From positions 186,001 through 250,000 of the forward strand of contig NZ_CZQA01000009.1 of the NCBI RefSeq assembly GCF_001458735.1: a DNA stretch of 64,000 bases, read 5' to 3'. The DNA comes from Candidatus Nitrospira nitrosa. Its GTDB lineage: Bacteria > Nitrospirota > Nitrospiria > Nitrospirales > Nitrospiraceae. Position numbers and translations under genes: made by a program. Shown in pieces: positions 39,046 through 44,711 of the stretch. Under the pieces are notes generated by a model. That model was not told where the DNA came from. It saw only the letters and a program-made list of their open reading frames with translations, and made no database searches. How positions within the stretch are numbered: the first letter of the stretch is position 1; every line of letters begins with the position of its first letter.

Positions 39046-39429
39046 CTAGGTCGTAAATCCCGCGGCAGCCTCTTCTTCCGTGTTACAGAGTTCAATGGTG
39101 CTTCCGTACACACGGTTGAGCAGATGAAATCCGCTGGCTTCGAGCGCCTCCTTGACCATCCCTTTTGCTGCCGCGATCTTCATCTGTCCTTGAACGGCAC
39201 TCAGCTCTTTTGAGGTCAGGATCAGGACGCGGATTCCCCCACTGCTGATATAATCGACATCGGCCAAGTTCAGGACGAGTTTTTTCGCGCCTTGGTCCAA
39301 AATCTTCTTGATCTCCTTGTTCCCCTGTTCGGCAGTGGTGGCAGACAAGCTACCCTGCACCTTCACGAAGGTAATCCCCGCGCTTTCACGGGAAGTCAAG
39401 GTCAATGTGTGTCGGGTTCCTTGGTCCAT
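39046..39429 (-). CDS. STAS-domain anti-anti-sigma factor
   Basis: 127 residues covered by a STAS domain: SAGITFVKVQGSLSATTAEQ, KLVLNLADVDYISSGGIRVLI with the phosphorylatable Ser in ISSGGIR, and the closing AAAKGMVKEALEASGFHLL. In SpoIIAA/RsbV-type proteins this Ser is phosphorylated by an HATPase switch kinase. The start is ATG 39429 behind AAGGAGG. It lies 139 nt downstream of the multi-domain phosphatase/kinase gene on the same strand, its likely partner. Confidence 0.9.
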   Translation of the reverse strand: MDQGTRHTLTLTSRESAGITFVKVQGSLSATTAEQGNKEIKKILDQGAKKLVLNLADVDYISSGGIRVLILTSKELSAVQGQMKIAAAKGMVKEALEASGFHLLNRVYGSTIELCNTEEEAAAGFTT

Positions 39430-39568
39430 CATCCCCTCCTTACATAGAAAACATTGGGCACACGGTCTGAACTGAATTCCGAGCCGCCTATGATAGCAGC
39501 GATACGTCTTTGGTTCCACCGGCACAATATCGGCTGACTAAAAGAGGCAAACCTCTCGCACCTCCTTC

Positions 39569-42349
39569 TTACCCTCCCTCTTGGACCTTGGAGTGGGCCT
39601 CTTCTAACGTGGAGACATAGAGGCTCATCAGCAACGCCCCGCTCAGTTGGAGTACGGTGCGAACATGCTCAGTTCCTCCTGCGAGGACGAGTCTTCCACC
39701 CCTTCCGGTCATGTCCATGGCGGCTTTCAGGATCACCCGCAACCCAATCGAGGAAATGTACGAAATATGGGAGAGATCCAACACAATCCGGCGTTCGCCT
39801 CTCTCGATGTAATCCGTCAGAATCTGTTCAACTTCCGGTGCACTATTCGTGTCGAAGCGATCCCGCGGTGCGACGATCACCACGGTCCCGCGTCGACTTG
39901 ATTCAACATGAATCCCCACGCCCATCGGCTCGTGGGCCAGTGGTCGTGACTGTTTCTCGACATCGCTTGAGCTGATCCGAGCCGTATCAGCTCGGTGACC
40001 GAGAACAGAGGACTCGGATACCAGTTTCTTCTTCACCGTCAACACATTGCATCCCACGTTGCGGTGGTAGGTGACTTGGTCAAACATAGAGCGGACCAGA
40101 TGAATGCCCAACCCACCGATTTCTCGTTCATGCAGCAATAAGGAAAGGTCAGGAGGAGCGGCGCTTAAGGGGTTGAAGGGAATGCCGTCATCCGTAATAG
40201 TCAAAATGACACACCCATCCTGCACATCCCCTTCCACATGGATGTGATGCTCTGTTGGGTCGTTGGGAAAGGCATACTGCACCACATTGTTCAGCAAGTC
40301 ATCCAGAGCCATATTGAGCGTAGGGATCAACGGCTTGGCTCCGTCCCATTGTGCCACATACTCCTCAAAGGCGATCTGTAGAACTGGAATGGCCTCCAAC
40401 TGGTTGCGCATCGTCTGTCGAAACACCCGCGTCGCAATATCAGAGGGAGTCATGCCGTGATAGCGCAATCCCAGCATCGTGATGTCATCCGCCTGTGGAG
40501 CGTCACCCGCAAACGTTCTCACCGCCTGCATCACGTCCCCCAAACGATCCACCACCGAACGAGCCTGTGATTTATCCAGCACCATTTTCAGCCGATCCTT
40601 GCCGAACAGTTCGCGCCTCCTATTGTCCGCTTCGGTGACTCCATCGGTGTAGAGAAAGAGTTCGTCCCCAGGCTCCAACTGAATGGTACTTTCTTTGAAC
40701 GCAATGCCCGCCATAGGCCCGACCAGAGGCCCATCTTGAGCCGTCAGCCATTCGAACGCTCCATTCGCTCGCTTTAACAAGGGAGGATTATGGCCGGCAT
40801 TGGTTGTCACAAGCGTGCCGTCTCGGAGATTCAAGATGCCGAGATAGAGCGTGACGAACATGCAGCTATCGTTCTCGGCACTGAGCGCATCATTCACATG
40901 AGTCACGATGCTGGCGGGAGACGGATCAGAGGCGGCTCTGGTCTTCACCATGATTTTCGTCATGGCCATAAACAACGCGGCAGGGACTCCGTTGCCCGAC
41001 ACATCACCGATCACAAAACAGAGCCGATGCTGACCGACGAGAAAAAAATCGTAGAGATCGCCGCCGATCTCCAAGGCTGGTTCCAGCACGGCATAAAGTT
41101 CCAATTCCTTGCGATCTGGGAAAGCGGGAAATACGCGCGGCAGCATACTCTGTTGAATATCGCGGCCGACATTCAACTCTTCTTGCATACGGGTTTTTGC
41201 GGCCTCGACCAAAGCCAACGAATCCGCCAACCGTGCCTTGGCATCCTCGGCCGCTTGTTCGGCATTTTTTAAAGCCGTAATGTCGGTGGCGATACAAACG
41301 ATCCCGCCATCCTGGGTCTTCCGCTCATTGATTTGCAGCCACTCCCCACTGGTCCGATACTCAATGTACGGTGTCACCGGATTGCGATGCATCTCAAGAC
41401 GCCAGCGCATCCAGGGTTCGACATTCCCCATCGCAGCTGGGATATCGCCGCGTTCGGCGGTCCGACGGACGATCGATTCGAAGAGGTCGCCGGATTGAAC
41501 TTCAGCCCCAGCCCCGGACATGACTTCGCGATACTTGTGGTTGCAGATGATCAGACGATCGCCCGCGTCGAACAATGCGAACCATTGCGGAACGCTTTCA
41601 ATCGCCTCGATCAACCGAGCATGACTCGCGCGAGCCTGACGAGAGGCCTTCGTCACTTGCCGATCGATAATGGCCAGGAGGGTGGACAGTGACACGGCGA
41701 CGACCGCAAGCAGATCAACGTCGATGGCCGGTGGCTGAGTACGGTTCGTGACATCCCCCATCATTTCGTACATCGGAATCAGCCCGATCAGATGCGTCCC
41801 GGCAAGGGCGACCCCCATCGCGGTCGACTTTTCCGTCACCCGCCAACCACCGTAGGTGATATTCAATCCTCCGATCACGGTGACGATCACACTGAGAACA
41901 ACGATGCCGATGACCGAATAGACAAATGGAAGAATGACGGCTTGGACATCCGTCGGTTGGTGCACAGCCATGGCGCTGGTCACGTGGGTGAGACTCATGC
42001 AGGCCCCCATCAACATACCCCCGGAGACGAGCCGCATCCACCTCTCGACGTGACTGCTGAGCACATAGACAGCGATGGCTCCGGTTGCCCCAGCGGAGAG
42101 TAGTGAGAGTATGGCAAGGCTAGCGTCTTCGGTTGCCGGAACGCTTGGACAAAAGGCGAGGTTCCCGATGAAATGCATGGCCCAGATCTCAAGGCCGGCT
42201 GCGAGGGCTCCAATGAGCAGCCATCGAATCGTGGCTTGACCTTGGTCGGGAGCACGCATCCGTTCGGCGATACTCAAAATGACGTAGGAAGCTGCGCCCC
42301 CAAATAACATCGAACAGACTGCGAGCAGCGGATCACAGATTCCCGACAT
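39569..42349 (-). CDS. MHYT-PAS-SpoIIE-HATPase-STAS signalling protein
   Basis: 926 residues with five modules in order. (1) MHYT 7-helix membrane sensor, about 1-225, with its His motifs at AMHFIG (59), LTHVTSAMA (122) and AGTHLIG (186). (2) PAS, about 250-360 (VPQWFALFDAGDRLIICNHKY). (3) PP2C/SpoIIE phosphatase, about 390-635, with metal Asp in GGDLYDFF, IGDVSGNG and YTDGVTEAD. (4) RsbW-like HATPase, about 665-785 (LDDLLNNVVQYAF, ITDDGIPFNP, GGLGIHLV). (5) STAS, about 825-920 (LDLSHISYISSIGLRVI). All three parts of a partner-switching cascade are thus on one chain with a gas/metal-type sensor. It lies upstream of a separate STAS gene. Confidence 0.93.
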   Translation of the reverse strand: MSGICDPLLAVCSMLFGGAASYVILSIAERMRAPDQGQATIRWLLIGALAAGLEIWAMHFIGNLAFCPSVPATEDASLAILSLLSAGATGAIAVYVLSSHVERWMRLVSGGMLMGACMSLTHVTSAMAVHQPTDVQAVILPFVYSVIGIVVLSVIVTVIGGLNITYGGWRVTEKSTAMGVALAGTHLIGLIPMYEMMGDVTNRTQPPAIDVDLLAVVAVSLSTLLAIIDRQVTKASRQARASHARLIEAIESVPQWFALFDAGDRLIICNHKYREVMSGAGAEVQSGDLFESIVRRTAERGDIPAAMGNVEPWMRWRLEMHRNPVTPYIEYRTSGEWLQINERKTQDGGIVCIATDITALKNAEQAAEDAKARLADSLALVEAAKTRMQEELNVGRDIQQSMLPRVFPAFPDRKELELYAVLEPALEIGGDLYDFFLVGQHRLCFVIGDVSGNGVPAALFMAMTKIMVKTRAASDPSPASIVTHVNDALSAENDSCMFVTLYLGILNLRDGTLVTTNAGHNPPLLKRANGAFEWLTAQDGPLVGPMAGIAFKESTIQLEPGDELFLYTDGVTEADNRRRELFGKDRLKMVLDKSQARSVVDRLGDVMQAVRTFAGDAPQADDITMLGLRYHGMTPSDIATRVFRQTMRNQLEAIPVLQIAFEEYVAQWDGAKPLIPTLNMALDDLLNNVVQYAFPNDPTEHHIHVEGDVQDGCVILTITDDGIPFNPLSAAPPDLSLLLHEREIGGLGIHLVRSMFDQVTYHRNVGCNVLTVKKKLVSESSVLGHRADTARISSSDVEKQSRPLAHEPMGVGIHVESSRRGTVVIVAPRDRFDTNSAPEVEQILTDYIERGERRIVLDLSHISYISSIGLRVILKAAMDMTGRGGRLVLAGGTEHVRTVLQLSGALLMSLYVSTLEEAHSKVQEGG

Positions 42350-42421: not shown

Positions 42422-43441
42422 TCAGCGCACCAGCTGATTGAGCCGTTCCCATCGCGGGTCGTGGGTGTCAGGGTTGACCGACCAGTAGACAAAGAGCACC
42501 CGTCCCAGCAGATGTTCCTTGCTGATCGGACCCAAGAAACGGCTGTCTAAACTTTCCTCACGGTTATCACCCATCAGAAAATAGGTCTCCAGCGGAACGG
42601 TAATCGGTGGGAGATGATCGCGGACATGCCCGGCCATACTTGAGCGGTCGGAATGGCGCGTATAGGGCTCCGACAAAGCCTCCCCATTCACATACACGAC
42701 CTGGTCGCGAATCGCAATCTGATCACCGGGGAGTCCGATCACGCGATGGAGAAACCGTTTCCCATTCTCGTCCGGATAGCGGTAGACGACGACGTCCCCA
42801 GGCTGAGGCTCCGCGGCCTGATAAGCCACCTGGTGCACAATCACATGGTCTCCCGGCAACAGCGTCGGTTCCATGGATTGGCTTGGGATCTGATAAATTT
42901 GAGACCGCGCACGAACGAGCGGCAAGAGCTCCGGGAGACGGTCTCTCACGAACGACTCGCGAAGATCCTGTAACGTGGACCACAGTAATAGGCTCTCGTC
43001 GTCATACCCTGTGACCAGCGCCTGCGCATCTGCGCCAGCCAGTCTGGTGCCGTAGTAGTCTGCAAGCTGATCTTCCCAGAAGTTCGTCGGCGCGAGATCG
43101 ATGAGCATGACTTTGAGGGAGTGGACGAATGATTGTTCAATTCGATCAGCTTGCGTCAAGGTCAATGGCGTAGACAGGCCCGATTGAGCTTCGAGCAGGC
43201 GACTGTACCCCACCACATCCGACTGAGCAGCGATCATGTGGAACAAGCGATCCGAGGTGACTTCGAGGCGAGCAAGCTGCTGATAAACCGTGAACGGCTC
43301 CTGGTCAACATGAGACACCGTCAATGAGGTCTCGCTGCATCCAGTCAAGAGACCAAGCCCCACACCAACCAACCAGAGGACAATACTCCTGAAGCAGCCC
43401 CTGCCGGAATCAGAGACAGAACAGAACGACGTGCGAGTCAT
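42422..43441 (-). CDS. lepB: Signal peptidase I with lipoprotein-type N-terminus
   Basis: 339 residues. The N-terminus ends in lipobox LLTGC (Cys35), so the protein is probably lipid-anchored, unlike usual LepB with its transmembrane helices. Residues 40-180 form an extra helical domain. The peptidase follows: IPSQSMEPTLLPGD (nucleophile S189), GDVVVYRYP, LHRVIGLPGD and FLMGDNREESLDSRFLGPI. In bacterial (P-type) enzymes the general-base Lys sits where this protein has H232 (FLHRV instead of FIKRV). Ser-His dyads are known from ER/SipW-type peptidases. Fold is firm, activity inferred. Start ATG 43441. Confidence 0.88.
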   Translation of the reverse strand: MTRTSFCSVSDSGRGCFRSIVLWLVGVGLGLLTGCSETSLTVSHVDQEPFTVYQQLARLEVTSDRLFHMIAAQSDVVGYSRLLEAQSGLSTPLTLTQADRIEQSFVHSLKVMLIDLAPTNFWEDQLADYYGTRLAGADAQALVTGYDDESLLLWSTLQDLRESFVRDRLPELLPLVRARSQIYQIPSQSMEPTLLPGDHVIVHQVAYQAAEPQPGDVVVYRYPDENGKRFLHRVIGLPGDQIAIRDQVVYVNGEALSEPYTRHSDRSSMAGHVRDHLPPITVPLETYFLMGDNREESLDSRFLGPISKEHLLGRVLFVYWSVNPDTHDPRWERLNQLVR

Positions 43442-43547: not shown

Positions 43548-44711
43548 TCAGTCTCCCGCCTTCTTGCTCCATGCAGGAGTCAGCAGTCTGACTAGGGCCT
43601 GAGGTATGCCTGTCAGGTCGCAATAGGTCCGGGTCCCGGCCATCACATCCGTCACCGCTTCAGAGAGGCGCTGCCCTTGCCGTAAAAACGCCCATGACCG
43701 GAGACGAGGAAAGTCGTACAGCAATCGGGCCAACAGGCGCCCGGCTCGCAGTTCAGGCATGAGGGACTCTGTTACTGACCGAGTATACTTGCCTTGAACG
43801 GCTTCTTCTTCCAGATTCCCGTCAATCAAGGACTGGGCAGCCAATTGACCACTGCGAAGGGCACCTGAAATGCCTTCTCCGGTGACCGGATCGGCAAATC
43901 CAGCCGCGTCCCCCACCACCAGAATGCGGTTCTTCATAAATGGTCCTGTTCGTGGCCGAATGGGAATGACGAATCCGTGACGATCAATCCGAGTCAGATC
44001 ACCACACCCAAGCAAGTCGAGGTACTGCGTGATTGCGCGCTTCAGCTCGCGTTCTCGCTGAACCATCGAGAGGATACCGATCGAGAGGTGTTGTTGTTTC
44101 GGAAACGCCCAGGCATAGCCATGGGGAAGGATGCCAAAATCAAATCGTGCCACGCCGCGCAAGCGATCCAACCGCTCCTGAGGGATCGTGACCTCGTACT
44201 CCAAAGCTGGAATCAGTACCCGTCCGTCCGCCATTCCGACTTTCCGTGCGACCTGGCTGAGCGCCCCGTCGGCAGCGACGAGAAACTGGGCCATCATGGC
44301 CCCCCTGTGGGTCATAACGGTCACCGAGTCACTCTTCGGAGAAACCTCTTCGACGGCGCAGCGTTGATACAGTACAGCACCTGCAGCCTGTGCAGCGGAC
44401 AGCAGGGCATAATCAAACTGATCGCGCATCGTCATGGAGACAATTGGTACTGATCGATGAGTGGTGAAGGATAAGCCCTCGGAAACAACATGGAGTTGGG
44501 CCGTGTGACAGTCCTGTTCAATCACATGGCGCACATCGATAGGCAAGGCCTGTATGGTACGACCAATGATCCCACCACCACAGGTCTTGTACCGGGGCAG
44601 TGCAGCCTTCTCAATGACGGCAACCCGGACACCTGCCCTGGCCAATCGCCACGCCGTGATAGAACCGGCTGGACCGCTGCCGACCACGATGACATCATAC
44701 GCGAGGCTCAT
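43548..44711 (-). CDS. Geranylgeranyl reductase family FAD-dependent oxidoreductase
   Basis: 387 residues. The N-terminal FAD-binding GxGxxG (VIVVGSGPAGSITAWRLARAG), then PRYKTCGGGIIG (the PxxKxCGG motif of the family) and ILVVGDAAGFADPVTGEGISGAL. The enzyme family reduces isoprenoid chains (geranylgeranyl lipids, quinone side chains) or acts as a related monooxygenase. There are no membrane helices. Monocistronic, divergent from the Zn peptidase gene. Substrate unknown. Confidence 0.9.
   Translation of the reverse strand: MSLAYDVIVVGSGPAGSITAWRLARAGVRVAVIEKAALPRYKTCGGGIIGRTIQALPIDVRHVIEQDCHTAQLHVVSEGLSFTTHRSVPIVSMTMRDQFDYALLSAAQAAGAVLYQRCAVEEVSPKSDSVTVMTHRGAMMAQFLVAADGALSQVARKVGMADGRVLIPALEYEVTIPQERLDRLRGVARFDFGILPHGYAWAFPKQQHLSIGILSMVQRERELKRAITQYLDLLGCGDLTRIDRHGFVIPIRPRTGPFMKNRILVVGDAAGFADPVTGEGISGALRSGQLAAQSLIDGNLEEEAVQGKYTRSVTESLMPELRAGRLLARLLYDFPRLRSWAFLRQGQRLSEAVTDVMAGTRTYCDLTGIPQALVRLLTPAWSKKAGD

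What the first reader, a model, noticed from the sequence alone, without database searches (positions are those of the whole stretch)
42422..43441. Lipoprotein-type signal peptidase I with His at the catalytic Lys position
The protein keeps bacterial P-type boxes (SMEPT, GLPGD, GDNREESLDSR) but reads FLHRV where FIKRV is expected, so the dyad would be Ser-His as in ER/SipW-type enzymes. It also starts with a lipobox (LLTGC) and a 140-residue extra domain instead of transmembrane anchors.
Basis: partly seen in the sequence, partly recalled or inferred. Interest (0 to 1): 0.65.

Follow-up and report, generated by a model that had tools for sequence, protein, structure and literature searches.

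The report
Dyad-less signal-peptidase-like lipoprotein of Nitrospira
A lipoprotein of nitrifying Nitrospira bacteria looks like the enzyme that trims signal peptides from exported proteins, but its family lost both cutting residues, and the serine seen in this copy came back later, so it probably binds peptides rather than cutting them.

Summary
The ORF at 42422-43441(-) has an S26 (signal peptidase I) domain with Ser189 but His232 in place of the catalytic Lys, a lipobox, and a ~140-residue extra N-terminal domain. A standard lepB (IPSGSM, FIKRIVG) lies elsewhere in the genome.

The reading as a Ser-His peptidase is not supported. In 46 family members from one bacterial family the serine is Ala, Thr or Gly in 40. 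It is Ser only in the window's own six-member clade, nested among Ala-bearing relatives. In the outgroup genera the serine is already gone while Lys remains. The cheapest history is: Ser lost, then Lys replaced (mostly by His), then Ser regained in the window clade. A tree uniting all Ser-bearing rows is rejected (AU p = 1.4e-5).

The S26 domain is equally constrained with Ser (median dN/dS 0.037) and with Ala (0.040), so it is kept for something other than cutting. I read it as a non-catalytic, peptide-binding S26 lipoprotein, working like streptococcal SipA but with a new N-terminal domain. In the genus it lies directly upstream of an MHYT-PAS-SpoIIE-HATPase-STAS signalling gene. Binding is inferred and the client is unknown.

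The parts
42422..43441 (-). S26-like lipoprotein gene, 339 aa (stop codon 42422-42424)
   Evidence: ORF and translation; relatives keep reading frame and start region
43337..43441 (-). signal sequence with lipobox LLTGC; Cys35 predicted lipidated (residues 1-35)
   Evidence: read from sequence; Cys in 38 of 38 aligned full-length main-clade proteins, absent in outgroup genera and in paralogue L059
42902..43306 (-). extra N-terminal domain, about residues 46-180, predicted helical, no Pfam match
   Evidence: no family at E<=10; low-confidence AF2 secondary structure is helical; shared with genera g12 and g14
42482..42901 (-). Peptidase_S26 domain, residues 181-320
   Evidence: PF10502 E 3.5e-44, TIGR02227, PDB matches to E. 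coli and S. aureus signal peptidases
42875..42877 (-). codon TCC, Ser189 in the catalytic-Ser column; apparently regained, Ala/Thr/Gly in 40 of 46 family members
42746..42748 (-). codon CAT, His232 in the catalytic-Lys column
39569..42349 (-). neighbour downstream: MHYT-PAS-SpoIIE phosphatase-HATPase-STAS signalling protein, 926 aa
   Evidence: Pfam; present in all 43 genus genomes with the S26 lipoprotein, downstream on the same strand
43548..44711 (-). neighbour upstream: FAD-dependent oxidoreductase, possibly geranylgeranyl-reductase type
   Evidence: Pfam; nearby in most but not all relatives

Best explanation
The gene encodes a non-catalytic signal-peptidase-like lipoprotein. It arose in one bacterial family (that of Nitrospira) from an S26 protein joined to a new helical N-terminal domain. 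The family first lost the nucleophile (Ser to Ala or Gly) while keeping Lys, then replaced Lys (mostly by His). The window's six-species clade later regained Ser by a single-base-type change (GCN to TCN). Shown: the residue pattern, its order on the tree by the fewest changes, strong purifying selection on the S26 domain with or without Ser, and a separate standard lepB. Inferred: after export and lipidation at Cys35 the protein sits at the periplasmic face of a membrane and uses the retained S26 cleft to bind a peptide or exported protein without cutting it, as a chaperone, docking factor or sensor. A functional tie to the adjacent SpoIIE/STAS signalling protein is possible but weakly supported.
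For: Both dyad columns across 46 members: Ser position A35/S6/T3/G2; Lys position H37/K5/Q3/L1. Trees built without those two columns nest the Ser clade inside Ala-bearing branches. Ser state needs 2 changes and Lys state 1; uniting all Ser-bearing rows is rejected, AU p 1.35e-5. Outgroup genus g12 is Ala/Lys and g14 is Gly/Lys. S26 dN/dS median is 0.037 in the Ser clade and 0.040 in its Ala sisters. Fold-supporting residues including Ser297, Asp299, Arg301, Arg233 and GDN are invariant in all 46. Standard lepB present. Precedent: SipA has the SPase fold and cleft with Asp/Gly in place of Ser/Lys and is needed for pilus assembly (PMC4049620).
Against: The window protein itself has Ser189, plus His232 and Asp299, the three residue types used by ER/archaeal enzymes, and five of the six Ser-clade members keep Ser and His together. 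The Ser has survived synonymous change (TCC against TCA), so it may now be selected. Peptide binding and the membrane location are inferred, not shown; the structure model was too poor to use (pLDDT 46).
Confidence: 0.77

Rival explanations
1. Ser-His peptidase: the window clade has a working ER-like Ser189-His232 (Asp299) site, reassembled by a Lys-to-His swap followed by regain of Ser, and cuts a special set of exported proteins.
For: Ser189, His232 and Asp299 are all present; His replaces Lys in ER-type and archaeal enzymes (PMC2913515); five of six Ser-clade members keep the pair across synonymous divergence of about 0.46.
Against: His arose while the family had no nucleophile; one Ser-clade member has Leu instead of His (L050); ER/archaeal and SipW models are below cut-off; constraint on the S26 domain is the same in Ala sisters.
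Confidence: 0.13
2. Decaying copy: a redundant S26 paralogue drifting toward loss, with no function.
For: Frameshifted or split in a few draft assemblies (G029, G010, G001); not found in 36 of 79 genus genomes; looser constraint in one large clade (median dN/dS 0.216).
Against: dN/dS of 0.02-0.07 in the window clade and its Ala sisters; unbroken ORFs in 40 of 43 genomes; invariant fold residues.
Confidence: 0.05
3. A version of the best explanation with a named partner: the lipoprotein is the periplasmic ligand-binding part of an envelope signal passed to the adjacent MHYT-SpoIIE-STAS partner-switching protein.
For: Present only where the signalling gene is present (43 of 43), downstream on the same strand, 75-211 bases apart in 36 genomes.
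Against: 12 genomes have the signalling gene without it; the gap holds an opposite-strand ORF in five genomes; outgroup-genus homologues lie elsewhere. Shared ancestry of a syntenic block explains much of this.
Confidence: 0.2

Closest known systems
SipA of Streptococcus pyogenes (non-catalytic SPase I homologue, PDB 4N31)
   Same: S26 fold retained while the dyad is replaced; not the cell's general signal peptidase
   Different: SipA has Asp/Gly at the two sites, a TM helix, and sits in a sortase-pilus cluster (PMC4049620); the Nitrospira protein is a predicted lipoprotein with an extra domain and is closer in sequence to active enzymes (PDB matches E about 1e-20 to 1e-17 to SPases against 5e-6 to SipA)
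SpsA of Staphylococcus aureus
   Same: described as inactive, lacking two conserved catalytic residues, beside an active SpsB (PMC12445088)
   Different: Gram-positive protein; not compared by sequence here
P-type signal peptidase I (LepB, SpsB)
   Same: boxes B, D and E, and the S26 fold
   Different: lacks the Lys (all 41 of the genus group) and usually the Ser; lipobox signal sequence instead of TM anchors
ER/archaeal-type signal peptidase and SipW
   Same: His in the Lys column
   Different: P-type box E; below the archaeal and SipW model cut-offs; Ser not conserved

Membership tests
P-type signal peptidase I (TIGR02227) | S26 fold and conserved boxes | tested here: met
   153.2 bits against cut-off 47; PF10502 E 3.5e-44
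P-type signal peptidase I (TIGR02227) | Ser-Lys catalytic dyad | tested here: not met
   Lys column is His232; Lys absent in all 41 genus-group members; Ser absent in 40 of 46
P-type signal peptidase I (TIGR02227) | N-terminal transmembrane anchor | tested here: inconclusive
   only hydrophobic stretch is a signal sequence ending in lipobox Cys35, conserved in 38 of 38; no TM predictor was run
ER/archaeal/SipW-type signal peptidase | Ser and His conserved as catalytic residues | tested here: not met
   His mostly conserved in the genus group, Ser not
ER/archaeal/SipW-type signal peptidase | family model score | tested here: not met
   TIGR02228 35.9 against 51.85; NF046067 SipW 14.9 against 190
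non-catalytic SPase-like proteins (SipA/SpsA kind) | S26 fold with dyad lost while a standard SPase is present | tested here: met
   at family level; the window copy itself has Ser but no Lys
non-catalytic SPase-like proteins (SipA/SpsA kind) | no peptidase activity | not testable with these tools
   needs an assay
non-catalytic SPase-like proteins (SipA/SpsA kind) | peptide-binding cleft retained | tested here: inconclusive
   fold and box residues conserved, but the AF2 model is low confidence

The most novel reading that the evidence does not exclude
A resurrected protease: a family that lost its nucleophile, then exchanged its general base from Lys to His while inactive, regained Ser in the window clade and now works as an ER-like Ser-His(-Asp) peptidase inside a bacterial P-type scaffold.
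Probability: 0.13. Interest if true: 0.85.

Novelty: new variant of a known kind. Interest (0 to 1): 0.45.

Why it matters
The non-catalytic signal peptidases I could find described are from Gram-positive bacteria. This is a lineage-specific, apparently lipidated one in a diderm, with a new domain, a resolvable order of residue loss (nucleophile before base), and an apparent reversal of the nucleophile to Ser. It gives a natural series (Ala/Lys, Ala/His, Ser/His) for testing what the S26 cleft does without cutting, and whether activity can return. It also warns that annotation by model score (153 bits, 'signal peptidase I') probably misstates the activity.

Tried and rejected
AlphaFold model from 13 sequences: pLDDT 46, pTM 0.31, not used for geometry or fold search. 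Search of viral contigs for more S26 sequences to deepen that alignment: none. Idea that the N-terminal domain is DUF2059-like: no Pfam match. Link to ammonia oxidation: presence of AMO does not track the gene. Remnants of the gene in eight relatives that lack it: none found beside the SpoIIE gene. Literature on Nitrospira signal peptidase: nothing relevant among the titles listed.

Full report
Observation. The ORF at 42422-43441 on the minus strand encodes 339 residues. Residues 181-320 match Peptidase_S26 (E 3.5e-44) and the protein passes NCBIfam's signal peptidase I model (153 bits, cut-off 47). Ser189 (codon TCC) and His232 (codon CAT) stand in the columns of the catalytic Ser and Lys, as alignment with the lepB of the same genome shows. 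The N-terminus carries a lipobox, and about 140 residues precede the S26 domain.

A standard enzyme exists. The genome has a second S26 gene (G000:C10:10115-10687), directly after lepA, with IPSGSM and FIKRIVGLPGD. Over the genus group 78 of 79 genomes have at least one S26 gene over the Pfam cut-off. The window gene is therefore extra.

The serine is not conserved. I collected 46 family members, all from one bacterial family; the N-terminal domain was found only there (genera g1 and g12 in a phylum-wide sample of 295 genomes; g14 added). The Ser column is Ala in 35, Ser in 6, Thr in 3, Gly in 2. The Lys column is His in 37, Lys in 5, Gln in 3, Leu in 1. Outgroup genus g12 has Ala with Lys, g14 has Gly with Lys, and a second paralogue in G102 has Gly with Gln. 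Relatives 81-86% identical to the window protein already have Ala.

Order of events. Trees built without the two columns place the six Ser-bearing sequences deep among Ala-bearing ones (clade support 100 in one model, 93/86 in the other). With lepB as outgroup, Ser state needs two changes and Lys state one; a tree holding all Ser-bearing rows together is 76 log units worse, AU p 1.35e-5. Loss of Ser, then loss of Lys, then regain of Ser is the cheapest account. Codons fit: GCG/GCC in Ala relatives, TCC/TCA in the Ser clade. Some nodes just outside the Ser clade are weak (56-92), and long outgroup branches are flagged by the tree program, so the exact number of steps is less sure than the nesting.

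Function is kept. In the S26 domain dN/dS has a median of 0.037 within the Ser clade and 0.040 within its nearest Ala-bearing sisters; the N-terminal domain is at about 0.12 in both. Other main clades are looser (0.138, 0.216). Box E, Arg233 and other fold residues are invariant in all 46. So the domain is selected for something that does not need the nucleophile. This is the main argument against both a Ser-His peptidase and decay. The dN/dS values are simple pairwise counts, not a model fit.

What it works like. SipA of Streptococcus pyogenes keeps the SPase fold and peptide cleft with Asp and Gly at the two sites, shows no detected peptidase activity and is essential for pilus assembly (PMC4049620). 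SpsA of S. aureus is listed as inactive (PMC12445088). PDB entry 4wvg, a fusion holding S. aureus SPase IB, reads GEAMDPT where 4wvh reads GESMDPT, the same Ser-to-Ala change as in the Nitrospira family. From these I infer peptide binding without cutting. The Nitrospira family is closer in sequence to ordinary SPases than to SipA, so an independent origin is likely; I did not place SipA or SpsA on the tree.

Location and neighbours. Cys35 is conserved in all 38 aligned full-length main-clade proteins and absent from the outgroup genera and paralogue L059, so the lipobox probably arose within the genus clade. Tryptophan at -3 in many members is unusual for a lipobox. Downstream lies a 926-residue MHYT-PAS-SpoIIE-HATPase-STAS protein. 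All 43 genus genomes with the S26 lipoprotein have it. It follows on the same strand in 42 by coordinates, and in the 43rd (G004) its start follows on the same contig (L054). The distance is 75-211 bases in 36 genomes; in five it is about 1.3 kb with an opposite-strand ORF between; in G034 the listed 1.4 kb reflects a partial match and the ORF starts about 0.3 kb away. Twelve genomes have the signalling gene alone. This permits a functional link, but a shared syntenic block explains it as well.

The organism. Relatives are labelled Nitrospira sp. and the genome carries ammonia monooxygenase, so it is a comammox Nitrospira. From memory, the size and contig number fit Candidatus Nitrospira nitrosa; not checked.

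Limits. No activity, binding, localisation or structure was tested. The window copy has Ser, His and Asp299, and a regained activity cannot be excluded; I give it 0.13.

Noticed in passing
window 39569-42349 (-): MHYT-PAS-SpoIIE-HATPase-STAS protein; in several relatives (G017, G015, G062, G070, G090, G091 among them) the frame has a stop and the match ends near residue 783, so the C-terminal STAS part is separate; a free STAS gene follows at 39046-39525 in the window.
   Followed up: partly
L059:5519-6520 (-): A second, divergent family member in genome G102 with Gly/Gln at the dyad, IQRVVGLPQD, and no lipobox Cys.
   Followed up: partly
L060:5435-6307 (+); L093:3360-4094 (-): Additional S26 genes with intact Ser/Lys and a longer membrane N-terminus in two genomes, separate from the standard lepB.
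   Followed up: no
L023, L021, L022/L083: Family gene split or frameshifted in draft genomes G029, G001 and G010; assembly error or decay not resolved.
   Followed up: no
L049:8473-9201 (-): A 242-aa opposite-strand ORF with a signal sequence and an outer-membrane-protein-like look sits between the S26 lipoprotein and the SpoIIE gene in five relatives.
   Followed up: no
L050:4037-5053 (+): One Ser-clade member reads Leu (CTT) instead of His (CAT) in the Lys column.
   Followed up: no
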